This document shows, piece by piece, positions 20,656 through 61,001 of a stretch of DNA of 64,000 nt. Position numbers and translations under genes: made by a program. This DNA is from a virus. Positions within the stretch are counted from its first letter, which is position 1. Each line of letters begins with the position of its first letter. The stretch spans positions 1 through 64,000 of IMG/VR virus record IMGVR_UViG_3300042883_000874. The stretch is one strand, 5' to 3'. Under the pieces are notes generated by a model. The model did no database searches and was not told the origin of the DNA. It saw only the letters and a program-made list of their open reading frames with translations.

Positions 20656-20666
20656 AAAATAAAAAT

Positions 20667-21881: not shown

Positions 21882-21892
21882 AATAAAAAAAT

Positions 21893-22588
21893 ATGTTAAC
21901 ACCAGCAACAATAAATGTAGAATTTATAGCAAATTATGCAGGTCAACACAGAGTGTGTTGGAGAGTTCAAAATTTAATAACTCCAGGTACTTATGCTTGT
22001 ACTAACATAGTTACATGTGTAGGTGGAGGAAACATGTGTTCAACAATTGTTTCAGTAATGGTTGATCCAGAAAGTTGTGATCCTATAATTTTTGAAGGAT
22101 ACATTCAAGCTACATGTAATGTAGAAGGTAGTCTTGTTGATAGAGTTCCTTTTGAAGTTACTTATACACCAACACCAACTTGTACTGGTTATAGATTAAC
22201 TAATACAACAGACTTAGTTGCTGATTTATCTTCTGCTGATTTAGGTTTAAACTGTAATGGAACAGTAAGACCAGCTACACAACTAGTAGCCGGCCAAGTT
22301 ATTAACTTATGTGGTATATCTAACATGCCAGCAGGTATTGTAACTGACTATGATGTTACACCTACAAATCTTTGTTGTTATACTTGTAATACTTATAGAA
22401 TTACAGGTATAAATACAGGAATGATGCCTGTAGGTACATTATATTATATAAATTGTACAACAAGAGAATTTACTGTTTTACCTATAACAGATACAGATCT
22501 TCCATTAGATATATGTATGGTAAAAGATTCATTAACTTATGCTGTCAATAATCTTGTTCTTACTATTACTGATATAGGTTCTTGCTAA
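21893..22588 (+). CDS. Cysteine-rich beta-sandwich virion protein
   Basis: This 231-residue protein has beta-rich composition with paired cysteines throughout, and no helical stretch or enzyme motif. The N-terminal 100 residues resemble an FN3-like fold (IANYAGQHRVCWRVQN). The C-terminal 70 residues form a second unit that ends in LVLTITDIGSC. It is the last gene of the cysteine-rich block and is followed by two hairpins, the second a strong terminator. It probably forms part of the same fibre or adhesin complex. Confidence 0.58.
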   Translation: MLTPATINVEFIANYAGQHRVCWRVQNLITPGTYACTNIVTCVGGGNMCSTIVSVMVDPESCDPIIFEGYIQATCNVEGSLVDRVPFEVTYTPTPTCTGYRLTNTTDLVADLSSADLGLNCNGTVRPATQLVAGQVINLCGISNMPAGIVTDYDVTPTNLCCYTCNTYRITGINTGMMPVGTLYYINCTTREFTVLPITDTDLPLDICMVKDSLTYAVNNLVLTITDIGSC

Positions 22589-45100: not shown

Positions 45101-47628
45101 TTATGGATGCTCAAGGTAATAAAGTAACTGCAGGTCCTCAATTTGATATTGCTTTAAAATTATTCAGCAACTTTACAGCTATTGCTGCTAAAGAAAAAGA
45201 AGATGAGCTTAAAAATAGACCAGTAAAAACATTACAAAGTACTATTAATGACATAATAGCTAACAAAGATTTTATTAAACTATCTGAAGATGGTACACAT
45301 TATGTAAATACTAAAACTGGTAAAAAGTATGAGAGAGTTACTAACTACATTGCTGATGAAAAATCTAAAAATGATTTTAAAGATGGTATTGAAAAAGGTG
45401 AAGATATAGAAGATTACAAACAAAGATTAATTGGATTAAACTATAAAGGAAAACCTTTAACAAAAAAGCTTACAACAGCTTCTTCTCAGATTATTGGTAC
45501 AAAAATAGATGTTCTAGTAAGAGATTTCTTTAATGGAGAACTTAAAGATTTATCAACATATGATGTATCTTCTTTAGAAGAGGTTCAAGCCTTTGTAAAA
45601 GAGTTACAACAAATTAAAGATAAAATGGATGCTAGAGGTGAAAAAGTTCTAGCAAATGATATTTTATTATATGATGATAACTTAGGTGTTGCTGGTACTG
45701 TAGATTTACTTACCTATACTGAGAGTGGTGATATCCGTATATATGATATGAAATCCATGAGAGGTAATCAGTTTACTAATGTTTATTTTAGTGGTATAAA
45801 TGAAGGAAAAACAGTATATGATAATATTTTTGAAGAAGGTAAAGATTCTAATAAAGTAAAACATCAAAAACAATTATCATTATATAGAATTTTATTAAAT
45901 AATACTCACAACTTAAGAGCAAAAACTCTTGCTGTAATGCCTATTGAAGTAATATATCAACCAGGTGATGTTGTAACTAGTGAATTAAATCTATTACCTG
46001 GAGTAAGAGTAACTCCTTTAGATCAAATTAAAGATGCTAGATTACTTCCTTTAAGAGATCAAGGTGAAAAAATAATTTCTTCATTAAGTCCTACAAGAAA
46101 AGAAGCACCAAAGACTGAAGAAGAAGCTAAAGAACAAGCTATTGAAGCTGAGACTAAAAGATTGTTAATGCAACCTAGAGAGAGTCTTACTCCTGCTGAA
46201 GAAAAAGCTTTAAGATTTGGATTGCCGGGCTCTTCTACTTTACAGACTAGAAAAGAATTTATTGAAAAAAGAATAGAGTTACTAGAGAAAAAAGCTGAAG
46301 CTTTAGGTTTAGATGCTATTGAGATTAATGATACTCTTGCTTACTTAGATGGTATATTAGATACAAGTACTGAAAGTATTCAAAACAATCTTAAAAATAT
46401 AGATGATCAGATTAAAAGTTTAAATAATATTATTAAGTCTAAAAGCTCTAAGAAAACTGCAAAAGGTGTTAAAGTTCAAGAGAAGATAGCTGAACTTAAA
46501 GCTGCCCGTACAGCAGAGTTTCAGTTGTTAAATGCTATTACAGATAGAGTAAAAGAACTTGAAGAAGATTTATCTGATGTTGAAGCTGTACAACAAGACT
46601 TACAAAAACAAGCTCAATACTATTCTTCATTGATTAGTGACCCTACTCTTACTACTTATACAAGAGATGAGTTAATTGCTAGAAGAGATAAGATAAACTC
46701 TAAGATAAATACTATAGGTAAATTACTTATAGCTGTTAGAAAAGCTATTGCTGATTCAATAAGATATATTAAAGAACATGTTAGTTTGTTATTTCAAACT
46801 GATAAAAATCTTAAGACTTTTATATCAGATAATGAGTATGAAAATTTTCAATATCCTACAATAAAAAATAAGATTGAGAGTCTTCAAAATGAAGTATTAA
46901 ATAACATAAATTCAGCTGAGTTTCTTGAAGTAGTAAAAACTAAAGAGGAAGAAAGGCAAGCTCAATTACTAGCTGCTTTATTAAAATATCAAGATCAAGT
47001 AAGATACTTAAGTGAACTAATTGATAACTATAAAGAAAACAATATAGGAAATAAGTTTACTACTACTACAATGAATCTTAATGCTAAAGAAGTTGTTGCT
47101 AGTAAACAAAAAGAATATCCTGTTACTATCAGTAGAAAGAATGCTAGAATTCAATCAAGAATTAAAGAAGCTAAACTTGCAGCTAGAGATGTTGCTGAAG
47201 TTGAGACAGTTACAGTTCCAACAGGAGAAGTAGTTGTTTCAAAAGTAGGGCCAACAAAAGTAACTAGTCAACAGTTAAATGAGAATTTAAATTTAAAAAG
47301 TTTAAAGGTTGCTCAAACTAATAAATTTGAAGTTATTTATGATAATATTCAGTATAAAATTGAGAAAGTTGGAACAAATTCAGTAACTTTGAAAAGTGCA
47401 CTTGGTACAAAGGTAACAATAAATGAAGATGATCTAGTTAGAGATCTTAGAATTGTACAACCAGGTATTGAGGAATCAACTGTAGAGGAAAATGAAATTA
47501 TTAAAGCTAATGAAAAACTTATTTCTGAAGAGCCTAAAGAGTTTAAAAAAACCAAAGCTGCAGATAAAGAAGATTATGCAAAAAGATTAAAAACAGGAAA
47601 AACAAATCTTATAGAAAACCTTTGTTAA
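42157..47628 (+). CDS. Giant cargo protein with PD-(D/E)XK nuclease-like core and hydrophobic segments
   Basis: 1823 residues. Hydrophobic, Gly/Ala-rich stretches at about 208-255 (GLTAATGGLMGATGASMMVG) and 543-565 could insert into a membrane. The region 1095-1245 matches RecB/Cas4-type PD-(D/E)XK nucleases: a helix with IGTKIDVLVRDFF near 1114, GTVDLL with D1183, D1197-M-K1199 (the D-x-K of the core), and KQLSLYRI near 1238 as the Q-x-x-x-Y helix. The rest is mostly helical, with long coiled coils (1330-1560). The usual motif-I His is replaced by Asp. It ends ENLC and the next gene starts one base later. Likely delivered into the host and may cut host DNA or process phage DNA; the activity is not proven. 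Confidence 0.62.
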   Translation: MAEELASQGQEQEQLAPQESELTNGAPALQALNNSAVDRIRQIEESLNLPARPNSIDAYKNIAGNPITGSNPSAKNSNSSVDFFTSMDKALSAMPKKESDIYGAMRPFSYNGDTDGANFERYHSSGDLYNKIGFSPYRDNESLYNDKMTFGDEFVRAASQWDNLVGTGFRSGIRSWSTLFTDPLAPDLEGAREMERIMAVGSSTKGGIGGFFINTFLNSGYTIGIGADFLAEELALMGLTAATGGLMGATGASMMVGKGLNAVENVFQGAKTAFAGSKRMENLRAINSVPEMKSLWTKMSQGTKSVVRETANILNPLDQTVDALRATDYASNYAKMTKTFGAFADDMLMMKGAVSEAKLEGGMAKINITEDLVAKYRSENGKDPDGAEMLKIEKIANDKAYQVAFWNLPAITTSNKLMYATMLAPLRSVMGREGAVKLVDDYLFNGKTFSAVGEGFLSKGKAALQSFTKPKFYGQFGMNYLKANFAEGIQENLQEAISSGAAKHAMQLYTDPIKAGYEGYMPHFMQGLGEQFSAQGAETFAGGFAMGMFAQPVMAAPSVAISKLVKAWGTENYAAAEKLNKEFKAKNAQYLNDFYDKALITLAPDIDNSITTGRLADDMYTAARNGKKKEAIDAIENIKDNKILVALQTGKLDIMINKVAQYKNLSRAEVVEAFGKYGIKEQDVDSALGKIDGIVARANQLKKDYEDVAEKYPNPFNPNKFILGTSERKAAEIAYKAWETAKYNLTFAKATYTSHSKRVADVANIFSNISNDLAKADAQNLMTLLNPATTKGEILALRQELSVLDDNVPEQKKLKAEKTKQLETINNFYEAVKAVKEAKTPEEKEAKDEIAKKAFMEHVKFLAKKNDHIVFNEDIEKAYSVVKDHMSLKDDMKGLAESINVLMAPQNFFKLHTRLNDAYSEILNNKEGIIEENQKLINRLNSINGILNLVTVDSGLNIPNELIEKYVEALDNDIEMPVATYFMDAQGNKVTAGPQFDIALKLFSNFTAIAAKEKEDELKNRPVKTLQSTINDIIANKDFIKLSEDGTHYVNTKTGKKYERVTNYIADEKSKNDFKDGIEKGEDIEDYKQRLIGLNYKGKPLTKKLTTASSQIIGTKIDVLVRDFFNGELKDLSTYDVSSLEEVQAFVKELQQIKDKMDARGEKVLANDILLYDDNLGVAGTVDLLTYTESGDIRIYDMKSMRGNQFTNVYFSGINEGKTVYDNIFEEGKDSNKVKHQKQLSLYRILLNNTHNLRAKTLAVMPIEVIYQPGDVVTSELNLLPGVRVTPLDQIKDARLLPLRDQGEKIISSLSPTRKEAPKTEEEAKEQAIEAETKRLLMQPRESLTPAEEKALRFGLPGSSTLQTRKEFIEKRIELLEKKAEALGLDAIEINDTLAYLDGILDTSTESIQNNLKNIDDQIKSLNNIIKSKSSKKTAKGVKVQEKIAELKAARTAEFQLLNAITDRVKELEEDLSDVEAVQQDLQKQAQYYSSLISDPTLTTYTRDELIARRDKINSKINTIGKLLIAVRKAIADSIRYIKEHVSLLFQTDKNLKTFISDNEYENFQYPTIKNKIESLQNEVLNNINSAEFLEVVKTKEEERQAQLLAALLKYQDQVRYLSELIDNYKENNIGNKFTTTTMNLNAKEVVASKQKEYPVTISRKNARIQSRIKEAKLAARDVAEVETVTVPTGEVVVSKVGPTKVTSQQLNENLNLKSLKVAQTNKFEVIYDNIQYKIEKVGTNSVTLKSALGTKVTINEDDLVRDLRIVQPGIEESTVEENEIIKANEKLISEEPKEFKKTKAADKEDYAKRLKTGKTNLIENLC

Positions 47629-47629
47629 T

Positions 47630-50600
47630 ATGGTATGTGATTTAAGTAAAAATAATTTAAAAGAGAATCTTGAAAATTATGTAAACCTTTTAATTGAAGG
47701 GCAACTTTTAAATGAAGAAAAGTTTAATTATAAAGATATAATTGATACTATTCAAAAAGATATAGCAGCTGCAAAAAATGACATTCAACAATCATTAGGT
47801 GTTGCATATCATGTGCCTCAAATTATCTATGATACCATAAAGAATAATCCTGAACTTAGTGAAAAAGAACTTGTTAAAAGAGGTTATGATTCAACTCAGT
47901 TAATTAAAGACATAACTGCTTTAGAAGATGCTGAAGATAAAATGGCTGCTATCTCTACTTTATTAGGTATAGAGAATACAAGTATTGAAGAAATAGAAAA
48001 AGTAATAGCTCAGCAAGCTACAAATCCAGATAAGATTTATTTTAAAGTAGAAGGTTCAGAAGAGCTTGCAATAGATAATATTTTATCTGTTGATGGATAT
48101 AATTTAACAACTCAACAAACAGCTGAAGAAGAAAAAGTAAATGGTAAAACTATCCCTAGTAGAACAGCAAGAGATGCAGATAAAGCATTCTATCAAGATG
48201 GTTTAGCTAAGATTTTACTAGCTAGAACAAGTGCTGACCAAGATTTTACAGAACTTGAATATGATGGTAAAACTGGTTTTAGAGGAAAAGTAATGTATGA
48301 AAAAAACATTCCAGGAAAAAAAAGAGCTGGTAGAGAAGACTGGTTACCTAGAAATGTAGTTATGCTTGTTTTAACTGATAATCAAGGTAATATTATGTAC
48401 TTTGATGAAAATCATAAAATTGCTAATATTAATACAGGTAAACCTATTTACTTTGCATTAAAAACAGTAAGTGTTACTAATACTAAAAACATTAAAGCTA
48501 GTCTAGCTTCTAAATTTAAAAACATAACTCCTGAACAAGAGCAAGAAATTAATGAAAAAGTTAAAAAAGATGCTGAAGCTCTTAATAAACTTAAAAAGAA
48601 ATTAGAAGATACAGAATCAGTTTTAGTTAACTTAACTGGAGGGTCAGTTGGAGTTGCTCAAAAATTAGATATTTTAACAGAGAAAGAACAAAAAGAAGGA
48701 GGAGCTACCTTATCAGAATTTAATCAAGATTCTTTTGACCCAAATATAGTATTTGTTAGAGAGGTATTAAAAGGTGTTACAAGAACTTTACCAGCAGTTA
48801 AGTTTTATACTGCAGAAAATTTAATAACATTAAAGAATTCAACAACTCTTGGTAATCAGGATCCTGAACTAATGGATCATCTTATAACTGTTCTTACTGA
48901 AGATATTGGATTAACTGATGTAGAAAAAGAACAATATGTTAGTCAGTTTATAAATCTTTATAGAGATGCTGCTGAATCTGATGCAAAACTTTTACCTTAT
49001 GTTATTGGTATAAAAACTGATAATAATAAAAAGCTTTATATTAATCTTAATAATGTAAGTGTGCCTTTAGAAAATAAAGAGGTATCTAAGCAAATGCTTA
49101 AAGACTTCTTTACTAATAGTGTATATATTCATTTTAATAATAAACTTTATACAAAACAACAATACACTAAATACACTATTGAAGATACAGCTATTGGGTA
49201 TAAGATAGTTTCTAAAAATGAATTAGCTTATAAACCATTTATATTCAGCAAGTTTACACCTAGAGTTGTAAGAGATAAGAATACAGGTTTACCAATGGTT
49301 GTAAATGGTTATTTAAACTTTGAATCTGAGTTAACTCAAGCTGAAGTTAAACAACAAGTTGTTGAAACTAGAAATAATACTGTAGCTCAAAATATACCAA
49401 TAACCAATACTGAAGCAGAAGAAGACTTGGATGATTTAAAATCTTCTAAGTTAATACAAAACTCTGCTACAGCTAAACAAGATGCTAGAGCTGAAAACTG
49501 GTGGAGAAATGAATCAGCATTGGCTAAAGAAGTGGATAGTGCTGGAAAACCTCTTTTTAGTCTATCCCTATTAAGAAATGTTGTAAACTCTGATGCATGG
49601 GCAAATTTTAGTAATTCAACTATTACTTTATTTAAAGGAGCTAGTTTTACTCAAGTTTATCATGAGGCTTGGCATGCTTTTAGTCAAGTGTATTTAACTA
49701 AAGATGAAAGAACTGAGTTGTTATACAAACCTGTATCAAAACTTCCAGGCAGTTTTAATGTTGTTAAGAAATTTGTAGAACCAGGTGGTGGTGTTTCTTA
49801 TAGAATGGTTACTTTAAACTTTAAAGATCTTGATGTAAACAAGAGACAAGATAGATTATTAATAGAAGAATTTATAGCTGAAGAGTTTAGAAAGTATGCT
49901 ATGAATAATGGTAAGTTTAAAACTGACTCTAAAGCAAAGACTGCCTTAGGTAGAATCTTTGATAGAATATGGAAGGCTTTAAAAGCTCTAGTAGGAAATT
50001 CTGATGTATACTCTAACACAAGTTCAGAAGGTGTTTTAGGTGATATGTTTAATGCTTTATATTCAGCTAAGTCTCCTGAAGACTTATTACCATATTCAGC
50101 TAATCTAAAAAATGCTGAGTTTGGTTCATTAAATAGTGGAGGTATTGTAACAGACAATGCTGAAAATGACTTAAGTGTATCTGAAGCTTTACTATTAACT
50201 AGAACTATAGATGGTATATTATCAGAATATGTAAATGAACAAGTAGGAAAAGGTCACTTTAGTGCAGTAACAAAAGTATTTTCAAGTAGAAAGTCACTTA
50301 CTAATATTTATAATAGAGCAAAGAATAGACTTAATGATAAAATAATTCAGTTAACAGATGAGAGATCTAAGCTTGCACCTACTGATGAACAAGCATTAAC
50401 TATCATTAATGATAAGATTAACTTATTAACAAGAGCTGTTAGAGATGAAGTATTTGGAGATATTGGTAAAGCCTTAGCTGGTCAAACTGCTAATGTTTCA
50501 GTTGTTTCTTTTCATAAAAACAACAGTACATTTAAAGATTTATTATCTACATTCAAACCTATAGTAGATGAAAAAGATAGTGATGACTATGAAGAGACCA

Positions 50601-53600
50601 GTGACACTGCTCAACAAGAGTTAGCTACAAGTCTTGATGCTTCTAGTAATGATGTTGCTTCAGAAAAATTAGCTGATGACTTAGTATTATATGTAATAAA
50701 AAGTTTAAATAAACAAACTAAAGATGGAGAGCCTGAACTAAATGAATTAGGTTTTCCTGAACCAATTGAGTTCTTACCTTTTTGGAGAGTCTTAATGGAT
50801 AAAGCTTCTGGTGAAACTTCACCATTAGGTTTATATAACAACCTTAAAAATGCATCAAAAGTATCTCCTTTGTTTACACAATTGTTAGGTAAGATATACT
50901 CGCAACAAACAGAAGAAGGTGAATTACTTTCTCCATCTGACTCATTAACCAAAATGTTTAAAGAAGGTAGTGACATTGGAGCTTTGTGGATGAAGTTTGT
51001 ACAGTCTACAAACTTACATAAAGTTGATATAGTTTCTACTGTTGTTCAAGAATATTCTAATAAACCAACTGATATAAGAGTTGGTAAAACAACTGCAGAT
51101 TATTTAGGAATTGTAAATACTGATTGGCCTTTAGCTTTTCAACAAAAAGAAATTGATAGTTTTACATATAAAAAAGATCAACTTAACTATATAGATTTAG
51201 AAGCTGTAGTTAATAGATATCTTATTAAAGGTGTAAACAATGAAAATAAAAATGTTTACAGTGTTTCAAAAGAAAACTATATTCCTTTCTTAAATAGTAT
51301 TGGCTTATTCTTATCTGACATGTCAGAAATTAAAGATAGTCTTGTACCTAATGATATAGATTTTATTGCAGATGCTATTGGACAAACTCAAGATAGTAAT
51401 GATTTAGCTACAAAAGACAAGGATAAAGTAAATATTGATAACATTATTGTTTATTTAGGTAAAGCTAGAACATTAAGCAATGGTACAAAACTTCCTGCAA
51501 ATGCTTTTGCTGTAAACAAGTTAGCTGAAACAGAAGCTTCTTATTCTACTGAATATGCAAACTCTATGAGATTTAATGCTGCTAAAAAGTTAAAGTCTTT
51601 ATTTGCACTTAATAGTACTGATACTCAAAAAATAAATGGTCTTAAGAAAGCTAATGAACAAGGAGATTTATATTCAGATAATCCTGAACTTGTTCACATG
51701 AACTTTCTTAATCCTAAGAGTAATCCTTTGACAAAAGGTTCAATCATACTAAAATCTTTATTTTCTAGTGTTACTGGTATTAAGATTAAAGATAATGATA
51801 TTAACTACCGTGATCTTAGTGGTATTAGTTACATAGATGAAACTTATGCTAGTGATGGTGTTACAAGTGCTAAGATGGGCTTTTTAGATAAAGTGTTATC
51901 TGTATTTATTTCTACTCTTGGTGGAGGTTACATGGATGGAATTCAAGCTGGTGATAAAAGTTCAAACTTTGGAGTTAAGCTTAATGTTATTGATACCTAT
52001 GATGAAAAAATAAACAAAGGTTTATATGTAGACACTGTAGCTTTTATGAAAGATGCTTCAGGTAGATCTATAATGGGATATAACCCAATGCAAAAAATAT
52101 TAGATATGTTGTATCCTAAATTAGAGGGTGAGATAAGAAGAATTGCAATGGTTAAAGCTGATCCTGAATACTATAACAATATTACAGGATTTGAAAGAGG
52201 TACTGAATTTGATATTTTTGATGAGATACTTGATGGTTCTCCTGGTCTTAAAGAGGCTTTAAAGTCTGAAGAACTATTTGAAAGTTTAAATAAAGTAGGT
52301 GATTTATATATTGTATTAAATGATAATCCTGCATTAAAAAAACAACTTAATGATAATATTATTAAATTCTTTGATAAACTAGAAGAGAGTTATAATAAAG
52401 ATTTATTTGATCCAATTTTTGGAGTTGATCAACCTTTACCTGCAATATTAAAAGAACTTATATTAAAAGACTTAGTTAATAATACTAAAGAAAAAAATAA
52501 TATTTATGGGGCTACTCCTGAAGATGTAGATTTAAATATTAAAAAAGCAGCTATAAAGTCTTATATGTTTAATAACTTTATACATAAGACTGAAACTACT
52601 TTATTATTACAAGGAGATGGCTTCCAATTTGATCATACTAAAGATGATATGACTAAGAGAGGTCCTGGTTCTCAATCTGGTGGTACTATATTTCCTGTTG
52701 ATCTATTGACTAAGATCTTTATTGATGCTAAAGTAGGAAGACCTTATGAACAAAAACTTATAGCTGATAAGATTATTGCAGAAAAAGAAGTAAGAACTTA
52801 TGGGCCTACTCTTAATTCAGCAATTATACAAGAAAGTGAAGTTACTTCAGTTTACTTTAATATGTACAGAGATTTATTTAAAAGAGACTATATAGATAAA
52901 GGATTAACTGATGAAGATGAAATTAATGCAGCTTTATATGGTGTAGATCCTGACACAGGTGAGATAGGTAATGCTGAAGTTGATGCAGAAGGTAATTACA
53001 GTAATGTATTTAAAGGAGGTAAAATGAAAGCCTTTATTAACATTCAAGATGCGGATGGTCAAGCTTTAATTACTTTTGATACTTATAGAATACTTAGACA
53101 AGCTGAAGGTAATTGGTCAAATGAACAAGAAGCTTTGTACTTTAAAGTTATAAATGGAGAAACAATTACTGCTACTGAGTTAACTAACATGTTTCCTGTA
53201 TATAAATTACAATACGATGGACCACTTGCTACAGAAGTTGGTAGATTTCCTATACAAGCTTTTCATAAGTATTCATTATTCCCATTAATACCAAGTGTTA
53301 TTAAAGACTTCCCTGCTAATGATGTACATAAAGCAATGATTTCTCAAAACATTGACTATATTACATTTACATCTGGTTCTAAAAGATCATCTATTAAGTC
53401 TAGTCCTGAAAGTAAGGGAGATTCTATATATGAAGGAGATACAAGTAATCTTAAAGCTGACTTTACTTTTACACCTAATACTATTTATATTGCTTACTTA
53501 AAGAACCAAACCTCAGTTAATACTTACTTTAAACAACAATCTACATTCTCTACTCAGTTACGTAAGTTAATAACTAGTTTATTGTATGCTTATGGTGTAC

Positions 53601-56600
53601 CAACAGATTATATTAAAGCTAATAACTTTAACAGTCCTGAAGAGGCACAAACAGCTTGGGATAAAGTTAAATACAAAAGACTTGAAAGTAAATTTCATGA
53701 TTATACTGAAGAATTCAAGGAGAGTATTGATGATTATGTAAAGTTTAAGAAAGAAGAATTACTTGAAGAACTAGGCTGGACAGAAGATGATTTATATGCT
53801 GAAAAAGTAGATGATGCAAAAATTAAATCAATGCTTGTAGTTTTAAATAAAGAATTTAAAAGACAAGGCTTTAGTGCACATGAAAGAGAATTATTAGAAT
53901 CATCATCTAATATTGACAAGTTAGACTTAAGTGTTAGTCCTTTAGCAGCTAGATTTGAAAGAATGATTATGGCTATGGTTAATAACAGATTAGTTAAGAC
54001 CAAGTTAAAAGGTGAACCTTTAGTTGAGGTATCATCAGCTTTCATGCAAAATACTAAACTTAGAAATGCTACTGCAGAAGAAAAAGCTAAATATAAAGAT
54101 GATTTTGCAACTAATGGTTTAAAACCTTATGCTGTTGATGGTATAAATAACAGTATAGGCTTTATGTTCAAAAGAGCCTTAGGTAAGATGGATGAAAATT
54201 TATTTCAAACTGATTACTTTATTCTTAATGAAGCTGGTGAATATGTAAATTCAGGACAGCCTATTGCTATATATAAAGATGAAGATCAAGAAGAACTTGA
54301 CTTTGATGCTAGTTTCATTAGATTAAATGAAATGCTTAGAGTTGATGCCTGGAGAGCTAATGATGAGAATAATAAAAAGTTAAGACTTACAGGTGTAAGG
54401 ATTCCAGTACAAGGTCATAACTCTATGGAGTTTGGTGAAGTAGCTGAGTTCTTAAGACCAGAGGCTGGACCAATTATCATTATTCCTGCTGAGATTGTAG
54501 CTAAATCAGGTACTGACTTTGACGTTGATAAGATGACTACCTACATGCCATTTCTTACTAGAAGTGGTAAGTTAATGAGGAAGTATGATAAAGAAGGAAT
54601 TGAAGCAGAAAGAAAAGAGTTAGAACAAAAGTTTGAAGATTTAAAAATTACTAAAGGAGCTATTGAAATACTTAAAAATAAAAAACAAGCTCAATGGTTA
54701 GATATTAATCTTAAACTTAATGACTTTAGAAAAGCTGTTAGCATAAGAGCTAGAGGTTTAAATATTGATGCTGATTTATTAAATTCACTTACAAGTTCTA
54801 AAAGTAAAGAGATCATAAAAATTATGAGTGATCCAAATGTAGAAAATCTTGTAAAAGAATTCTTTCCTAAAGCTAGTCTTATTTACAACTACTCAATAAA
54901 AGGAATTACTTTAGAAGATGTTGATGCTGTTGATGGAGCTTTAAGATCATTATATAAAAATAAATCTGAACTTAGTAAAGTATATACTGAACTTTCTGAT
55001 CTTAATGATAATGAAAATAACTTAGGAGGTGGTCTTCAAAATAAACTAATTCAAGATATGGTTAATATTCTTGAGTTACCTGAACTAGCTGCTTCATTAA
55101 TGTCTCCAAATGATACTAACTTAGTTAAGCCTTATGCTGATAAGATAAAAGGTTATATACAAGAAGCTGATAATGAGACTGACTTTACCAAATCTCTAAT
55201 GACTGGTAATAAAATGTACAAGAAAGGAATCAGTACTACAAAAATATATACTGAAACTTATAATATTAAAAAGCATCAAGAAAACTTTAGTAGTAAAGAC
55301 TCATTAGGTATTGCTGCTGTAGATAACTACATCAATAACTTGCTTAATATGGCAGGAGCTAAGATGCAAAAATCTGTAAATGTTACAGCAAAAGTAGCTG
55401 AAACTAAAAGATCTTTCAATAAAAAAACAAATAAATGGGATACAAAAACTGTATGGGCTAATCAAGTTGTAGAAATTCCTTTAGATTTAAATCTTGCTCA
55501 TAACAAACTTGATGGTGCTATATCCTTATCTCACATCATGGATAAAGAAGGTAAGAATTCTATTGCTGATATTATCAATCAGATGATGAATGGTTTTGTG
55601 GATGCTGGTAAAGATGCTTGGGTTGCTTACTTACAAGGTAATCCTGAAGTTGTACCTAAGTTCTTATTCTTATTAGAGGCTGGTGTTCCTATTGAAACTA
55701 TAGCATACTTTGTATCTAATCCAATGACTAGACAGTATGTTAAAGACAAAGCTAAGGCTAAAGCTACTTTATCAAAGTTGTTTAATTTTGGTACTCAGTA
55801 TGATGTAGCTCCTAATATGTTAAAGACTATTTCAGAATATTTACCAGAAGCTGAAGCTGAAATTCTCTCTAAAAATGGTTATAAGGACTTGCCAAAAGAT
55901 AGTATTTATAATATTACAACAGCTTTAAACTATTTTAAGAAACCTGAAACTTTCACTAAAGAAACTCTTGAAGGATTAGTAAAATCAAAGTTAAACTATA
56001 AAGATCCTAATCAAATAGCTGCATTCTTAGAGTACTTGTATGTAGAAAAAATTATTGAGGATTATGATGCAATGAAAAAAGCAATGAATCCTGATACTAA
56101 ACCTAGTGGTGATCAATACTCAGCTCAAGCAAAAATTGAAGAAGTTGCTGGTCTTGCAAATACACCAACTTTAGATCCTGGTCCAATACAAAAACTATCT
56201 ACAGATAGTATTATATCTCCATATTTTATACAAGATTTTGCTAGAAGATTGTTTAGTAGATTATTTAAGTTAAGAGATGATGCTCAGTTAAATAACTTTC
56301 TTATTAAAACTTTTAAAAATAGAACTGCTATGTCTCAAGCAAAAAAAGCTACAGGATATGACAGTGAAACTTATATTACTAAGTTTAAAAACTTTATTTC
56401 TCAGTACATTTTTGCTAATGAGTTAAGAGTTTATAAATCTGGAGATACTGAATATAAAAATGAAGTTATTAATCCTAAGTTTTTAGAACAACTTAATCAG
56501 GATTTTGATGCTGGTTTATACTTAGCTACTAGTACTGATGAAAACTCTTATAAGAATAGAGGTTTAACTCCTATTAATGGTAAAGCATTTCCAAGATTAG

Positions 56601-58651
56601 TAAAAATGGGGAAAGATCAACAAATGTATTTTGTACCTAATGAAAAACTAAGAACTGATTTTATTGAGTTTGGGTTAGAGAGAGAATACTTAAGAAAGAG
56701 AACTACTCTTGCTGATGTTATTGATACAAATGAGTTTCTTACCAGAAGAAAAAGATTAAAAGATTCAGGTTCTTTAGAGTATAAACAAACAGATGAAGAA
56801 ACTAATGAAGAATATGTTAATAGATTAAATAATCTTACCTATGAAGATATGTTAGCTAATAAAGCTTTAACTAATACTTACAACATATGGCAGTTATTTA
56901 GATCTGGAGACAATACTATAGCTAGAGAGTTGATGGATATCATTACAAACTATCCTGAGATGAGTGATCTTACTAAATACTCTATGTTAAAACAGTTTAT
57001 GCCTCAAGGTATACCTAACATAGCTGCTTATAGAGATGTGTTAAACTTCCAATTAAAAAATTATGAGAATCTTGATGAAGGTTTAATTAGTGAATACTAT
57101 ACCCAATGGAATAATTTATCTAATGTTGGTGAACCTAAATTAACTAGTAAAAAATACAGTGATGGTAAAGCTAATGCTTACATAAGTAAGTTTTTTGAGA
57201 ATCTTCCTATCTATGCTTTCTTACAATCAGGTATGGATTCAAGTAAGTTCTCTTTATCTAGTATGATGCCTTATGAAAAGTATCAAGAAATAATGGAAAA
57301 AGCTTCTGAGAAGTTTCTTAAAAAGATTGAAACAACTGATCCTGATACAATTTTTGGTGGTTTAAAGAAACTGTTTGAAATGGAGAATAGTGCATCTCAA
57401 GGAAAATTAAGAAACAGAGGAGCTAATTTAAAAGTTGATATTTCTAACTTACCTGATGCTGAAAATAACATCTATGAACAACCATTCATTAAGCCAGTAA
57501 CAGGAGATACTGAAATTCCTACAGGAATATTTAATATAACTAGTACTTATGTTCAGAATGGTAGAGAGTATCCAGTTACTAAGGATAGGGTTGAAAAATT
57601 AATAAAAGCAAACCCTAATGTTATATTCTTACTTTCTCCAGCTGACTTACACAAGGTTGGTAAGGACTTAACTCCTGAAGAAATTAAAGCTGCTCAAAAA
57701 AATATTGATATTGCTATTGACAGAATATTAAGTCAAGGTAATGATGTAGTAATATTTGCTGAAGGCTTTGGAGATTCTCCTAAGAACTTCTTCAGTACTA
57801 GTACTGACATGAGTACTAAACCAGTAATTAGTCCAGTTGTAACTGAAAAGAGTACAACTACTCAACAATCTGCTGAAGAAAAAGAAGTTGATAGACTTAG
57901 AGCAAAAGAAAAAGCAGCGTATGCTGCTATGACTAACCCAGCAGATCAAGAAAAGAGAAAAGAAATTTATCTTAAGTATGATAAGTTACTTACTCCTTTA
58001 ATGAAAAAGATTGATGCTACTCAACCATCTAGTAGTGTTATACCTAAAGGTTTTAAACTTTCTATAGATAAAAAAGGTAAAGATCAAGGTAAAGCTAATT
58101 TAGCAAATGCTTTTATTTCTTATCCTAATTCTGGAACATCAAGTTATGCTTATTTACAAGATGCTAAAAAACAAGGTATTCCTGTTAATGATGAAATTAA
58201 AGTTGGCCCACAAGTAATAGCTTTTGTTTCTGTAAATGGTAATAATAAAGCTACAGATAAACAGATAGAAGATACTTATTTACAAGCTAGAGAAATAATT
58301 GAAGCAGGTGGTACTATTATAATGGACTCAACTTCTGATGCTAATAGATCATGGAATAAACAAGGAGAAGCTTTAGTACAAGCTGAATTAGGAGTTCCAA
58401 CAGGTCAAACTTCTAAAGGGTATAACTATTGGGGAATTAATCCTGAAAGTACTACTCAACCATCTACTGAAGCATTAGACTTTAAAACTATGCCTGAATT
58501 TACAATAGATAGAAAGAGAGAAATTTTAACTAACTTAGCAGCCAAACATGGTGTAACTCAACAAGAAGCTTATGAGTATATCAATGAAGCTTTGAATGAT
58601 AAAACTAAGAACCCTGTTACTATAATTAATAAACTAAAAGAATGTTACTAA
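47630..58651 (+). CDS. Virion RNA polymerase megaprotein with zincin-like domain
   Basis: 3673 residues, far longer than described crAss-like virion polymerases (for example about 2180 for the phi14:2 protein, from memory). HEAWH at 678-682 plus EEFIAEEF near 744 is a zincin metallopeptidase pattern, possibly for self-processing. DFDVD at 2296-2300, preceded by RIPVQGHNSMEFGE and GPIIIIPAEIV, matches the metal-binding DFDGD loop of multisubunit-type RNA polymerases in the form crAss-like phages use. KYSLFPLIPSVIK and SGSK near 1878-1915 fit the other catalytic barrel. Residues about 3290-3390 and 3470-3610 look like Rossmann-like or SLOG-type domains (EAGGTIIMDSTSDANRSW). In this group the polymerase is packaged, enters the cell and transcribes early genes. 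The polymerase call is solid; the flanking modules are inferred. Confidence 0.85.
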   Translation: MVCDLSKNNLKENLENYVNLLIEGQLLNEEKFNYKDIIDTIQKDIAAAKNDIQQSLGVAYHVPQIIYDTIKNNPELSEKELVKRGYDSTQLIKDITALEDAEDKMAAISTLLGIENTSIEEIEKVIAQQATNPDKIYFKVEGSEELAIDNILSVDGYNLTTQQTAEEEKVNGKTIPSRTARDADKAFYQDGLAKILLARTSADQDFTELEYDGKTGFRGKVMYEKNIPGKKRAGREDWLPRNVVMLVLTDNQGNIMYFDENHKIANINTGKPIYFALKTVSVTNTKNIKASLASKFKNITPEQEQEINEKVKKDAEALNKLKKKLEDTESVLVNLTGGSVGVAQKLDILTEKEQKEGGATLSEFNQDSFDPNIVFVREVLKGVTRTLPAVKFYTAENLITLKNSTTLGNQDPELMDHLITVLTEDIGLTDVEKEQYVSQFINLYRDAAESDAKLLPYVIGIKTDNNKKLYINLNNVSVPLENKEVSKQMLKDFFTNSVYIHFNNKLYTKQQYTKYTIEDTAIGYKIVSKNELAYKPFIFSKFTPRVVRDKNTGLPMVVNGYLNFESELTQAEVKQQVVETRNNTVAQNIPITNTEAEEDLDDLKSSKLIQNSATAKQDARAENWWRNESALAKEVDSAGKPLFSLSLLRNVVNSDAWANFSNSTITLFKGASFTQVYHEAWHAFSQVYLTKDERTELLYKPVSKLPGSFNVVKKFVEPGGGVSYRMVTLNFKDLDVNKRQDRLLIEEFIAEEFRKYAMNNGKFKTDSKAKTALGRIFDRIWKALKALVGNSDVYSNTSSEGVLGDMFNALYSAKSPEDLLPYSANLKNAEFGSLNSGGIVTDNAENDLSVSEALLLTRTIDGILSEYVNEQVGKGHFSAVTKVFSSRKSLTNIYNRAKNRLNDKIIQLTDERSKLAPTDEQALTIINDKINLLTRAVRDEVFGDIGKALAGQTANVSVVSFHKNNSTFKDLLSTFKPIVDEKDSDDYEETSDTAQQELATSLDASSNDVASEKLADDLVLYVIKSLNKQTKDGEPELNELGFPEPIEFLPFWRVLMDKASGETSPLGLYNNLKNASKVSPLFTQLLGKIYSQQTEEGELLSPSDSLTKMFKEGSDIGALWMKFVQSTNLHKVDIVSTVVQEYSNKPTDIRVGKTTADYLGIVNTDWPLAFQQKEIDSFTYKKDQLNYIDLEAVVNRYLIKGVNNENKNVYSVSKENYIPFLNSIGLFLSDMSEIKDSLVPNDIDFIADAIGQTQDSNDLATKDKDKVNIDNIIVYLGKARTLSNGTKLPANAFAVNKLAETEASYSTEYANSMRFNAAKKLKSLFALNSTDTQKINGLKKANEQGDLYSDNPELVHMNFLNPKSNPLTKGSIILKSLFSSVTGIKIKDNDINYRDLSGISYIDETYASDGVTSAKMGFLDKVLSVFISTLGGGYMDGIQAGDKSSNFGVKLNVIDTYDEKINKGLYVDTVAFMKDASGRSIMGYNPMQKILDMLYPKLEGEIRRIAMVKADPEYYNNITGFERGTEFDIFDEILDGSPGLKEALKSEELFESLNKVGDLYIVLNDNPALKKQLNDNIIKFFDKLEESYNKDLFDPIFGVDQPLPAILKELILKDLVNNTKEKNNIYGATPEDVDLNIKKAAIKSYMFNNFIHKTETTLLLQGDGFQFDHTKDDMTKRGPGSQSGGTIFPVDLLTKIFIDAKVGRPYEQKLIADKIIAEKEVRTYGPTLNSAIIQESEVTSVYFNMYRDLFKRDYIDKGLTDEDEINAALYGVDPDTGEIGNAEVDAEGNYSNVFKGGKMKAFINIQDADGQALITFDTYRILRQAEGNWSNEQEALYFKVINGETITATELTNMFPVYKLQYDGPLATEVGRFPIQAFHKYSLFPLIPSVIKDFPANDVHKAMISQNIDYITFTSGSKRSSIKSSPESKGDSIYEGDTSNLKADFTFTPNTIYIAYLKNQTSVNTYFKQQSTFSTQLRKLITSLLYAYGVPTDYIKANNFNSPEEAQTAWDKVKYKRLESKFHDYTEEFKESIDDYVKFKKEELLEELGWTEDDLYAEKVDDAKIKSMLVVLNKEFKRQGFSAHERELLESSSNIDKLDLSVSPLAARFERMIMAMVNNRLVKTKLKGEPLVEVSSAFMQNTKLRNATAEEKAKYKDDFATNGLKPYAVDGINNSIGFMFKRALGKMDENLFQTDYFILNEAGEYVNSGQPIAIYKDEDQEELDFDASFIRLNEMLRVDAWRANDENNKKLRLTGVRIPVQGHNSMEFGEVAEFLRPEAGPIIIIPAEIVAKSGTDFDVDKMTTYMPFLTRSGKLMRKYDKEGIEAERKELEQKFEDLKITKGAIEILKNKKQAQWLDINLKLNDFRKAVSIRARGLNIDADLLNSLTSSKSKEIIKIMSDPNVENLVKEFFPKASLIYNYSIKGITLEDVDAVDGALRSLYKNKSELSKVYTELSDLNDNENNLGGGLQNKLIQDMVNILELPELAASLMSPNDTNLVKPYADKIKGYIQEADNETDFTKSLMTGNKMYKKGISTTKIYTETYNIKKHQENFSSKDSLGIAAVDNYINNLLNMAGAKMQKSVNVTAKVAETKRSFNKKTNKWDTKTVWANQVVEIPLDLNLAHNKLDGAISLSHIMDKEGKNSIADIINQMMNGFVDAGKDAWVAYLQGNPEVVPKFLFLLEAGVPIETIAYFVSNPMTRQYVKDKAKAKATLSKLFNFGTQYDVAPNMLKTISEYLPEAEAEILSKNGYKDLPKDSIYNITTALNYFKKPETFTKETLEGLVKSKLNYKDPNQIAAFLEYLYVEKIIEDYDAMKKAMNPDTKPSGDQYSAQAKIEEVAGLANTPTLDPGPIQKLSTDSIISPYFIQDFARRLFSRLFKLRDDAQLNNFLIKTFKNRTAMSQAKKATGYDSETYITKFKNFISQYIFANELRVYKSGDTEYKNEVINPKFLEQLNQDFDAGLYLATSTDENSYKNRGLTPINGKAFPRLVKMGKDQQMYFVPNEKLRTDFIEFGLEREYLRKRTTLADVIDTNEFLTRRKRLKDSGSLEYKQTDEETNEEYVNRLNNLTYEDMLANKALTNTYNIWQLFRSGDNTIARELMDIITNYPEMSDLTKYSMLKQFMPQGIPNIAAYRDVLNFQLKNYENLDEGLISEYYTQWNNLSNVGEPKLTSKKYSDGKANAYISKFFENLPIYAFLQSGMDSSKFSLSSMMPYEKYQEIMEKASEKFLKKIETTDPDTIFGGLKKLFEMENSASQGKLRNRGANLKVDISNLPDAENNIYEQPFIKPVTGDTEIPTGIFNITSTYVQNGREYPVTKDRVEKLIKANPNVIFLLSPADLHKVGKDLTPEEIKAAQKNIDIAIDRILSQGNDVVIFAEGFGDSPKNFFSTSTDMSTKPVISPVVTEKSTTTQQSAEEKEVDRLRAKEKAAYAAMTNPADQEKRKEIYLKYDKLLTPLMKKIDATQPSSSVIPKGFKLSIDKKGKDQGKANLANAFISYPNSGTSSYAYLQDAKKQGIPVNDEIKVGPQVIAFVSVNGNNKATDKQIEDTYLQAREIIEAGGTIIMDSTSDANRSWNKQGEALVQAELGVPTGQTSKGYNYWGINPESTTQPSTEALDFKTMPEFTIDRKREILTNLAAKHGVTQQEAYEYINEALNDKTKNPVTIINKLKECY

Positions 58652-58652
58652 T

Positions 58653-61001
58653 ATGAGCTGTGTAAATCCCAATGATTCTTTATTTAAGATTTTACTTAAA
58701 AAAGTTAAAAATCCTTTATTAGCTGAGATTGAGTTTGATAAACAGTCTGAAGGTGAACCTGTAAATAAAGCTGAGGCTTCTTATGATAAAGCTCTTATTA
58801 AAAATGCTGGCAATGATGTATCTAAAATATTTGAAAACTATCTTGCTCAATTTGGTATCACTGTAAAAGATATCAATGAAGTAAAAGATAAGTTAAATAT
58901 TGATGAAGTAGGTTATGCTGACATTCTATCTAAGATTGCCTTTGTTAAAGACAGGAAAAACTTGCCAGAAATAGCTGGTGAATTCATTGCTTACATGATG
59001 AAACATAATGGTCTTGTAAAAGACATTATATTAGACTTTGCAAAGAATGATGCTAAACTAAAGATAAAAAAGAGTGCTATATACTATGTAGCATCAGGTT
59101 TAGGTAAAAGTGTTTTGGCTAAAAAAAATCCTAACAAGTTTGTTGATATGGATGATTTATTATTTAAAGCTGTTAAGAATATAACAGGTTTAGATATGAA
59201 TACTATGGATGCATCTATGGAGCTTAACAAAAATGAAGATGTTGGTAAAGAACTTGTAAAATTAATAGAAGCAGTAAGTGATACTAAAATTATATTAAGT
59301 CCTTTAAATGAGGCTAAAATTAAAAACTTAGGCTTAACATATAAGAAATTCTTTGTTCCTAGTGCAGAGAATATACCTAACATAATAAAAGGTATATCTG
59401 AAAGATCTACTAATCCTTATGATATTGATGAAGAGTTATATAATGAGTTGTATGTAGATAGAGTATCTAAAAATAAAAATGTTTTTCAAGTTAATAACTA
59501 TATTGAGAATGAGTTTGAAAATTTAAGTACTGATACTCAAAACTTAGAAGAATTCTTAGATAGAGGTGATTATGTTACTACTAATAATTATAGTGATTTA
59601 TTAAAAGATCAAGACTATTTTAAAAGAATAGGTATTCTAATTGCTAATGAACTACAAGGTAGATATGATATTTCAAATGATAAGTCATTAGTAAGTAAAA
59701 TCAAGAAGATTATTAGTAAGTTCTTTGGGTTATTTAAGAAATCTGATGTTACTACTATTAATAAAAACATTGGTATTATTGTAGATAATGTAGTTAAGCA
59801 AAATAAAAACTTTATTACAGCAAGTATATATAAACCAGGAGCTGAAGGTAAGATTACCAAACCTGTATCCATTAAACAAGCTTTATTAAAAGATGAGTTT
59901 GGTAAAAAAATTATATATAAGCTTTCACAAAAAGGTTTTATTCTTACAGGATCTACAGCTTTATCAGAACAGGGTACTATATTAAGACCAAATGAGAACC
60001 CTTTACATGATATTGATTGGGTAAGCCCTTTCTCTAGAGAAGAGACAGATAAAATTTTTAAAGAAGTGTATCCTGATGCTATTTTTGTCAGAGACATTCA
60101 AGATGTAAAAGGAGGCTATACTACTGATAGTTATTTAATAGCTCCAGAAGGTTATGAAATTAAAGGTTATGAGGCCAAAAAATATGGTGATAAAATTATT
60201 ATAGATTCTTATAGTGTTGTAGATAAAAAAACTGAGGAAACTGTAGGTACTTATGCTTTAGAGTTTGATGAGGTTAAGAATAAAATGGTTGAAAAGGAAA
60301 ATGGTGTAACTGGTAAAGTTATTGACTTTTTTAGCTATGAAGATTACCAAAAATCAAATAAAAATGAAGCCTTTGAATTTGTTACTTCTGATAAAGTTTC
60401 TATTAAATTAGCTAATTGGAAAGATATCTTTGCTGCTAAATTAAAATTTGCAAGATATAAAGACATATGGGATTATAACAGGTTTGTACCTAATGAGAAT
60501 ATTCAAGAGATAGATGAGGAGATAAATGATTATATTACTAAAAAAGTTATTAAAAACTTTGGAATAGCAATTCCTGGTAAAGATAGTGAGCCTCTTGTTC
60601 CTAAAGCAGAAACTGATAAGTTTAATAATGCTGTTATGATGAACAATAATATATTACCATCTGAGTTTTTTACAGGTATAAATAATGTTCATAATTGGAA
60701 ACTTAATAAGAAAAATCTATATAATTTAGTAGATAAAGACACTAAAGAAATATACTTAAGAGATGTAAACCTTAAAACAGGTTATATGGAAGAAGGAGAT
60801 GTTATAGTTACACCTATCAATGTTGCTGAACAAGCTGAGACAATAGATTCTGTAAACAATAGTATAGAAAAATATAGACTTGATGAAATTTTAGCTGAAA
60901 AAGGTTATGATGCAAATGATATTATTAGTAATTTAGAGGCTGCAACAACCCAAGAAGAATTAAATAAGATTATTAACAAATTATTAAAACTGATATGCTA
61001 G
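58653..61001 (+). CDS. Cargo protein with P-loop-like and nucleotidyltransferase-like motifs
   Basis: 782 residues, mostly charged helices. ASGLGKS at 147-153 followed by KFVDMDDLLFKAV is like the Walker A and second motif of kinases in phage cargo proteins, although the first Gly of the classic pattern is Val. Further on, FILTGSTALSEQG with G433-S434 and then LHDIDWV with D453 and D455 follows the GS...DxD scheme of MNT/AbiEii-type nucleotidyltransferases, with a longer spacer than usual. The N-terminus MSCVNPN and C-terminus KLLKLIC echo the neighbours' ends. The start is one base after the polymerase stop (TAATATG) and the end overlaps the next start. Probably delivered with the polymerase; substrates are unknown. 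Confidence 0.55.
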   Translation: MSCVNPNDSLFKILLKKVKNPLLAEIEFDKQSEGEPVNKAEASYDKALIKNAGNDVSKIFENYLAQFGITVKDINEVKDKLNIDEVGYADILSKIAFVKDRKNLPEIAGEFIAYMMKHNGLVKDIILDFAKNDAKLKIKKSAIYYVASGLGKSVLAKKNPNKFVDMDDLLFKAVKNITGLDMNTMDASMELNKNEDVGKELVKLIEAVSDTKIILSPLNEAKIKNLGLTYKKFFVPSAENIPNIIKGISERSTNPYDIDEELYNELYVDRVSKNKNVFQVNNYIENEFENLSTDTQNLEEFLDRGDYVTTNNYSDLLKDQDYFKRIGILIANELQGRYDISNDKSLVSKIKKIISKFFGLFKKSDVTTINKNIGIIVDNVVKQNKNFITASIYKPGAEGKITKPVSIKQALLKDEFGKKIIYKLSQKGFILTGSTALSEQGTILRPNENPLHDIDWVSPFSREETDKIFKEVYPDAIFVRDIQDVKGGYTTDSYLIAPEGYEIKGYEAKKYGDKIIIDSYSVVDKKTEETVGTYALEFDEVKNKMVEKENGVTGKVIDFFSYEDYQKSNKNEAFEFVTSDKVSIKLANWKDIFAAKLKFARYKDIWDYNRFVPNENIQEIDEEINDYITKKVIKNFGIAIPGKDSEPLVPKAETDKFNNAVMMNNNILPSEFFTGINNVHNWKLNKKNLYNLVDKDTKEIYLRDVNLKTGYMEEGDVIVTPINVAEQAETIDSVNNSIEKYRLDEILAEKGYDANDIISNLEAATTQEELNKIINKLLKLIC

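What the first reader, a model, noticed from the sequence alone, without database searches (positions are those of the whole stretch)
47630..58651. Unusually long virion RNA polymerase with extra modules at both ends
The polymerase core (about residues 1700-2420) occupies only part of 3673 residues. A zincin-like part precedes it and two Rossmann-like parts follow. The length exceeds what I know for this family. The fused modules may be a takeover complex delivered as a single polypeptide.
Basis: partly seen in the sequence, partly recalled or inferred. Interest (0 to 1): 0.7.

Follow-up and report, generated by a model that had tools for sequence, protein, structure and literature searches.

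The report
Cysteine-capped chain of phage polymerase proteins
The long phage enzyme in this window belongs to a known family and is not unusually long, but it and its neighbours, and their counterparts in all the crAss-like phages examined, have cysteines almost only at the ends where one protein would meet the next, which suggests that these phages link their injected transcription proteins head to tail into one chain.

Summary
The ORF is real (47630-58651, 3673 aa). It is a divergent crAss-like virion RNA polymerase (vRNAP): DFDVD at residue 2296, RxPxQG at 2257, polymerase homology over about 1290-2705. An HExxH zincin-type part precedes it and two alpha/beta modules follow. The length claim fails: named Crassvirales have vRNAP polypeptides of 4070-5801 aa. 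The 'extra' zincin is the zincin at the end of the neighbouring protein in crAss001; the gene boundary has moved.

The surprise is cysteine. P0001 has two in 3673 residues, at 3 and 3672. The upstream cargo protein has one, its last residue. The next has residues 3 and 782 (last). The fourth starts MLAC. The same code holds in every named Crassvirales genome checked (24 of 24 unfused junctions, two needing a shifted start codon) and in a blind set of 50 IMG/VR contigs: 61 junctions with cysteine on both sides, 10 with neither, 4 discordant, all explained. Outer chain ends lack it. Where genes are fused the pair is gone; three fully fused proteins of 5220-5639 aa have no cysteine at all. Best explanation (inferred): disulfides link the ejected proteins head to tail. 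The pattern is shown; the bond is not. I found no report of it in the papers held.

The parts
42157..47628 (+). Link 1 (P0002, 1823 aa): first chain protein; only Cys is the last residue
   Evidence: nuclease region matches crAss001 gp47
45196..45939 (+). Exonuclease-like region of link 1 (residues 1014-1261)
   Evidence: phrog_298 E 5e-11; matches gp47 1741-1873, E 5e-10
47623..47625 (+). Junction 1, C-terminal Cys codon of link 1 (residue 1823)
47630..58651 (+). Link 2 (P0001, 3673 aa): vRNAP polypeptide; Cys only at 3 and 3672
47636..47638 (+). Junction 1, N-terminal Cys codon of link 2 (residue 3)
49661..49675 (+). HEAWH zincin motif (residues 678-682)
   Evidence: region 641-786 matches crAss001 gp47 2114-2225
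51497..55744 (+). Region homologous to crAss-like vRNAP (residues about 1290-2705)
   Evidence: hhalign E 2.8e-28
54398..54415 (+). RIPVQG motif (residue 2257)
54515..54529 (+). DFDVD catalytic motif (DxDxD, residues 2296-2300)
57482..57829 (+). Tail module A, alpha/beta (residues about 3285-3400)
   Evidence: conserved in G001 and G002
58037..58465 (+). Tail module B, alpha/beta, GFKLSIDKKGKDQGKA...GYNYWG (residues about 3470-3612)
   Evidence: recurrent in vRNAP tails of 7 other contigs
58457..58648 (+). Conserved 64-residue C-terminal tail of P0001 (3610-3673)
   Evidence: 87.5% identical in G001 although the module before it is replaced
58643..58645 (+). Junction 2, C-terminal Cys codon of link 2 (residue 3672)
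58653..61001 (+). Link 3 (P0003, 782 aa): inserted accessory link; Cys only at 3 and 782
   Evidence: L183 has a 754-aa protein here with no detectable homology and Cys 3 and 752
58659..58661 (+). Junction 2, N-terminal Cys codon of link 3
60996..60998 (+). Junction 3, C-terminal Cys codon of link 3 (overlaps the start codon of link 4)
60995..64000 (+). Link 4 (P0004, 1122 aa, runs past the window): last link; Cys 4 and 842, none at the C-terminus
   Evidence: homologous to the last-link family, E 2.7e-50
61004..61006 (+). Junction 3, N-terminal Cys codon of link 4 (residue 4)

Best explanation
P0001 is the vRNAP link of a four-protein cargo chain. Shown by sequence: at every boundary between consecutive chain proteins the upstream one ends in a cysteine (usually 0-2 residues from its C-terminus) and the downstream one has a cysteine at residue 3-6; the outer ends lack it, the interiors are nearly cysteine-free in most lineages, and where two links are fused into one gene the pair is absent. 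Inferred: in the virion each pair forms an intermolecular disulfide, so nuclease/zincin, polymerase, accessory and last proteins form one continuous chain that is threaded, partly unfolded, through the tail in a fixed order and 1:1 stoichiometry. The reducing host cytoplasm then opens the bonds and the parts refold and start early transcription. Gene fusion and cysteine pairing are two solutions to the same need for a continuous chain, so boundaries can move and new links with cysteines at both ends can be inserted.
For: Window and lineage: (7 of 7 further junctions in related contigs). Named Crassvirales, 24 of 24 unfused junctions (my count; cr110 and crAss002 need a start codon 14 and 32 codons further in). 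Blind set of 50 IMG/VR contigs: 61 both / 10 neither / 4 discordant (Fisher p 5e-9, but sequences are related); the discordances are two neighbours with no cargo homology (L168, L185), one Cys 17 residues from the end (L175) and one start-codon choice (L160). Cys enriched 92-fold and 67-fold in terminal windows, no other residue above 2-fold. Outer ends 0 of 25 and 1 of 26; the one is the C-terminal half of a split vRNAP. Fused states need 6 plus 3 changes on the tree. Fully fused L155, L159, L166 hold U-, R- and D-like parts in order (U part weak in L155) and 0 Cys. In crAss001, DAC15 and frurule the first gene lies on the opposite strand and keeps its C-terminal Cys. The pair follows moved boundaries. 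crAss001 virions contain gp47, gp49 and gp50, and disulfides form in its tail (PMC10172136).
Against: No disulfide between cargo proteins has been observed; most cargo was not resolved in the crAss001 reconstruction (PMC10172136). Capsids assemble in a reducing cytoplasm and many hosts are anaerobes, so when oxidation would occur is unclear. In fused proteins loss of terminal Cys is partly trivial. Gut lineages carry more internal cysteines (e.g. L167, 40), so pairing could be less exclusive there. L171 lacks a C-terminal Cys in its shortened vRNAP ORF and remains unexplained. phi14:2 vRNAP is reported active in vitro (PMC10136315), so the chain may not be needed for catalysis.
Confidence: 0.6

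Rival explanations
1. The terminal cysteines mark head-to-tail contacts but work without a disulfide, for example as paired ligands of a shared metal ion or as a contact used when the subunits reassemble in the host.
For: The pairing evidence fixes which ends belong together, not the chemistry. The chain carries a zincin, so metal is plausible.
Against: Each end offers only one thiol and no second Cys or strongly enriched His; no other residue is enriched more than 2-fold at the termini. Fully fused proteins keep no cysteine at the former junctions.
Confidence: 0.2
2. The cysteines are a generic terminal tag for packaging or processing of cargo proteins, not a link between neighbours.
For: Cargo proteins need some packaging signal; the tails can be conserved while the modules before them are swapped.
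Against: The outer ends lack the tag (0 of 25 first proteins, no true last protein), fully fused proteins have no Cys yet are presumably packaged, and other cargo proteins upstream carry no terminal Cys.
Confidence: 0.08
3. The cysteine codons are a by-product of gene-boundary DNA: TGT or TGC arises from stop/start overlap or initiation context.
For: Many boundaries are tight, and at junction 3 of the window the TGC codon overlaps the next ATG.
Against: Gaps run from -29 to over 50 bases; the first gene of crAss001, DAC15 and frurule is on the other strand and not followed by the vRNAP gene but keeps its C-terminal Cys; outer ends lack it; background ORFs show 7% and 11%.
Confidence: 0.02
4. 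P0001 is simply an ordinary crAss-like vRNAP with accessory domains, and the cysteine pattern only reflects cysteine avoidance in ejected proteins.
For: N4 vRNAP (3500 aa), gp51 and gp52 and T7 gp15 and gp16 have no Cys at all, so avoidance is a wider trait.
Against: Avoidance predicts no Cys at the ends either; here the ends are the places where it is kept (92-fold and 67-fold).
Confidence: 0.1

Closest known systems
Cellulophaga phage phi14:2 virion RNA polymerase (gp77 in KC821624, g066 in NC_021806; PDB 6VR4)
   Same: Same catalytic motifs and profile homology over about 1000 columns; same chain order; Cys at 3 and 2179 of 2180
   Different: 2180 aa; no HExxH zincin motif found in the vRNAP protein; no module A or B; three links instead of four; the window lineage gives no sequence-level PDB hit
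crAss001 cargo proteins gp47, gp50, gp49 (Steigviridae)
   Same: Nuclease, zincin, vRNAP and last protein in the same order; same terminal cysteines; present in virions by mass spectrometry (PMC10172136)
   Different: Boundary after the zincin instead of before it; gp47 on the opposite strand; no extra link
Fused vRNAPs of Suoliviridae and Intestiviridae (cr1_1, cr50_1, cr130_1, Carjivirus communis)
   Same: Same parts, fused at one of the two boundaries, with the Cys pair kept at the remaining boundary
   Different: 4070-5801 aa, longer than the window protein
Phage N4 vRNAP (gp50)
   Same: Giant ejected vRNAP with an HExxH domain and complete cysteine avoidance
   Different: T7-like single-subunit polymerase (PMC12633501), HExxH after the polymerase, no cysteine at all and no terminal pairs
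Polyvalent proteins (Iyer et al. 2017, PMC5512222)
   Same: Multidomain delivered effectors in which zincin-like peptidases are the commonest domain
   Different: That paper does not mention crAss phages; no terminal cysteine pairing is described in the passages read
Phage P23-45 tape-measure-fused vRNAP (PMC10770324)
   Same: vRNAP made covalently continuous with another virion protein
   Different: By gene fusion to the tape measure, not by cysteines

Membership tests
crAss-like virion RNA polymerase | DxDxD (DFDxD) metal-binding motif in one long polypeptide | tested here: met
   DFDVD at 2296; compared with crAss001, phi14:2, cr1, cr4, cr110
crAss-like virion RNA polymerase | Sequence/profile homology to phi14:2-type vRNAP | tested here: met
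   hhalign 98.6%, E 1.3e-15 (core) and 99.8%, E 2.8e-28 over 1012 columns
crAss-like virion RNA polymerase | Two double-psi beta-barrels in one chain, as in 6VR4 | not tested
   The polymerase core was not modelled; a sequence search with the lineage profile finds no PDB chain
crAss-like virion RNA polymerase | Packaged in the virion and ejected | not testable with these tools
   Known for crAss001 gp47, gp49, gp50 in virions (PMC10172136); inferred here
Order Crassvirales | Closest hits in annotated phages are Crassvirales and gene order is conserved | tested here: met
   All tblastn hits are crAss-like; terminase, portal, major head protein, then cargo block; chain order as in phi14:2; own lineage next to L183
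N4-type (Schitoviridae) vRNAP | T7-like single-subunit polymerase fold with HExxH domain after it | tested here: not met
   DxDxD-type motif and homology instead; HExxH lies about 1600 residues before the catalytic motif
Zincin metallopeptidase | HExxH plus downstream conserved Glu | tested here: met
   HEAWH at 678; invariant E residues of EE..AE.F in all aligned rows; matches crAss001 gp47 and cr1_1
Zincin metallopeptidase | Zincin fold | tested here: inconclusive
   Model too poor, mean pLDDT 48
SLOG/Rossmann-type tail modules | Recognisable SLOG or Rossmann fold | tested here: inconclusive
   Alpha/beta pattern, module B pLDDT about 85; no PDB match below E 0.001; no relevant Pfam or PHROG match

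The most novel reading that the evidence does not exclude
Crassvirales carry their transcription machinery as a disulfide-linked, head-to-tail multi-protein chain, a cysteine-coded equivalent of a polyprotein, which is threaded out of the virion in order and taken apart by reduction in the host.
Probability: 0.6. Interest if true: 0.92.

Novelty: new variant of a known kind. Interest (0 to 1): 0.85.

Why it matters
How phages with stubby tails push hundreds of kilodaltons of enzyme through a narrow tube, in order and in fixed ratio, is an open question. A cysteine code at the protein boundaries gives a concrete answer that one gel or one re-analysis of existing mass-spectrometry data can test. 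It would explain why vRNAP genes of crAss-like phages look fused, split and shifted without pattern: only the chain matters, not where it is cut. It would also make the links interchangeable, so accessory enzymes can be inserted, as P0003 and its apparently unrelated counterpart in L183 suggest. These phages are the most abundant in the human gut. The finding as handed over (long vRNAP with extra modules) is by itself ordinary.

Tried and rejected
Length as a novelty: rejected. Zincin as an acquired N-terminal extra: rejected, it is the crAss001 gp47 zincin with a moved boundary. Pfam, PHROG and PDB sequence searches of P0001: nothing useful. AlphaFold of the zincin region: too poor to use. 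AlphaFold of the tail plus Foldseek against PDB: no significant match. DNA-boundary artefact as cause of the cysteines: rejected. Packaging tag: disfavoured. A phage thioredoxin in this genome as the reducing partner: a simple motif scan found no convincing candidate. Papers: no mention of cargo cysteines found in held text; Drobysheva 2020 and Yutin 2018 are not held, so a remark there cannot be excluded. The first hhalign run on the fused proteins failed for a technical reason and was repeated in pieces.

Full report
WHAT IS THERE. The window lies in a 101,922-base IMG/VR virus record with terminase, portal and major head protein at its start and a block of very long forward genes at its end. 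The ORF 47630-58651 is intact and codes for 3673 aa. It holds DFDVD at 2296 and RIPVQG at 2257, and these correspond to the same motifs of crAss001, phi14:2 and other crAss-like vRNAPs. A profile of the window lineage matches phi14:2-type vRNAPs with 98.6% (core) and, over window residues 1290-2705, 99.8%, E 2.8e-28. All tblastn hits in 50,697 phage records are crAss-like. It is therefore a divergent Crassvirales vRNAP; in the core tree its lineage groups with L183 with strong support, and its place among the named families is weakly resolved.

IS IT UNUSUAL IN LENGTH OR MODULES? No for length. The polypeptide that carries the catalytic motif is 4070 aa in Carjivirus, 4245 in cr3 and crAss002, 4417 in cr110_1, 4491 in cr4_1, 4551 in cr1_1, 4774 in cr50_1 and 5801 in cr130_1 (cr4, cr113 and cr130 contain many in-frame stops under the standard code, consistent with the recoding known in such phages, PMC7886860). 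A review gives up to about 6000 aa (PMC10136315). The zincin-type part is not an addition: residues 641-786 match the end of crAss001 gp47 (2114-2225) and cr1_1 (1978-2099), and the nuclease region of the upstream protein P0002 matches gp47 1741-1873. The order nuclease, zincin, polymerase, last protein is kept; in this lineage the gene boundary lies before the zincin instead of after it. The tail is truly variable: G001 (65% identical) has an ASCH-like region (below cut-off) and a NADAR domain in place of module B; G002 (47%) has an ASCH-like region, an AlkB-type oxygenase and a fusion to part of P0003. Module B itself recurs in the vRNAP tails of seven other contigs. These fit the idea of injected counter-defence modules known from polyvalent proteins (PMC5512222) and phage NAD/ADP-ribose systems (PMC9503650), but their function here is inferred. 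No fold match was significant.

THE CYSTEINE PATTERN. While comparing termini I counted cysteines. P0002: one, its last residue (1823). P0001: two, residues 3 and 3672 of 3673. P0003: two, residues 3 and 782 (last). P0004, the homologue of the last chain protein (E 2.7e-50): residue 4 and an internal one. Codons were read directly. The relatives agree: G001 1584 of 1586 | 3 and 3855 of 3856 | 3 and 468 of 468 | 4; L183 1803 last | 4 and 3406 last | 3 and 752 of 754 | 5; seven more contigs of the lineage, each with the only Cys of the vRNAP fragment at its end and a Cys at 3 or 4 of the next protein. One of these next proteins is complete (L191, 655 aa) and has Cys 4 and 654, again a middle link.

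TEST ON NAMED GENOMES. I took annotated genes from 18 records: 17 Crassvirales in Steigviridae, Suoliviridae and Intestiviridae, plus Dulem virus 41. By my count of that table there are 24 unfused junctions for which both sides are held, and all 24 have Cys near the end of the upstream protein and Cys near the start of the downstream one; in cr110 and crAss002 the annotated start must be moved to an internal MSC. Examples: phi14:2 1797 last | 3 and 2179 of 2180 | 3; crAss001 2339 of 2341 | 5 and 2404 of 2412 | 5. First proteins have no N-terminal Cys and last proteins no C-terminal Cys.

BLIND TEST. With the rule in hand, I fetched 50 IMG/VR contigs by a DNA pattern for the catalytic motif and scored them automatically. 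Of 75 junctions, 61 have Cys on both sides, 10 on neither, 4 on one side. The four: L168 and L185, where the neighbour taken has no homology to cargo; L175, Cys 17 residues from the end; L160, Cys at 13 with the start chosen. The 'neither' cases are boundaries of fused or otherwise joined proteins with their outer neighbours. Outer ends: 0 of 25 first, 1 of 26 last, and that one (L141) is the C-terminal half of a vRNAP split in two ORFs. Terminal windows are enriched 92-fold and 67-fold in Cys and in no other residue above 2-fold. Background ORFs have 7% and 11%. Sequences are related, so the Fisher value (5e-9) is not a true probability; the repeated fusions are the better test.

FUSIONS AS NATURAL EXPERIMENTS. 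On a tree of 66 cores the state 'first fused to vRNAP' needs 6 changes (at least 5 forced by well-supported branches) and 'all fused' 3. Each time the pair at the fused boundary is gone. L155, L159 and L166 (5472, 5220, 5639 aa) contain first-, vRNAP- and last-like parts in that order (the first part of L155 is weak) and have not one cysteine. In crAss001, DAC15 and frurule the first gene is on the opposite strand and still ends in Cys, so the signal is in the proteins, not in the DNA of the boundary.

MECHANISM. Shown: the sequence code, its pairing, its loss on fusion, its movement with the boundary. Known from others: gp47, gp49 and gp50 are in crAss001 virions; cargo is thought to pass the tail partly unfolded, N-terminus first for gp45; disulfides do form in that virion's tail (PMC10172136). 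Inferred: interprotein disulfides make one chain of about 7400 aa here, ejected in order, opened in the host. Controls: N4 vRNAP, gp51 and gp52 and T7 gp15 and gp16 have no Cys, so ejected proteins may avoid cysteine in general, which makes its retention at the junctions more telling. Open: when oxidation happens, and whether metal or another chemistry is used instead.

NOVELTY. As a vRNAP it is a new member of a known family. The terminal-cysteine code is a feature of the whole order for which I found no report, so I class it as a new variant of a known kind (ejected virion RNA polymerase cargo); if the disulfide chain is shown, it would be a delivery arrangement without precedent known to me.

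LIMITS. Drobysheva 2020 and Yutin 2018 could not be read; the searches made found no report of the pattern. Start codons are predictions. L171 is unexplained. Contig fragments limit some junctions.

Noticed in passing
L001:14863-14866 (contig IMGVR 3300009170_000006): The 86%-identical relative has one in-frame TAA in the vRNAP ORF (after residue 1621), where the window reads a sense codon. It may be a sequencing error, a real break or read-through.
   Followed up: partly
window 15929-19117: A 1062-aa protein with 78 cysteines, next to other cysteine-rich proteins (19168-22588), in striking contrast to the nearly cysteine-free cargo block.
   Followed up: no
window 39378-42155: The 925-aa protein before the chain has exactly two cysteines (128, 134), kept in G001 and L001 and, in the 934-aa form, in G002; perhaps an internal pair.
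   Followed up: no
window 58653-61001: P0003 has a P-loop-like stretch and a GSTAL..HDIDW nucleotidyltransferase-like stretch by eye; its middle is replaced in G001 while both ends are kept.
   Followed up: partly
L196 and L197 (phages N4 and T7): Ejected proteins N4 vRNAP, gp51, gp52 and T7 gp15, gp16 contain no cysteine at all; T7 gp14 has one, at residue 2.
   Followed up: partly
L027:9984-17192 (cr126_1): A NADAR domain sits near the N-terminus of this vRNAP (residues 62-189, E 2e-13), so such modules can sit at either end.
   Followed up: no
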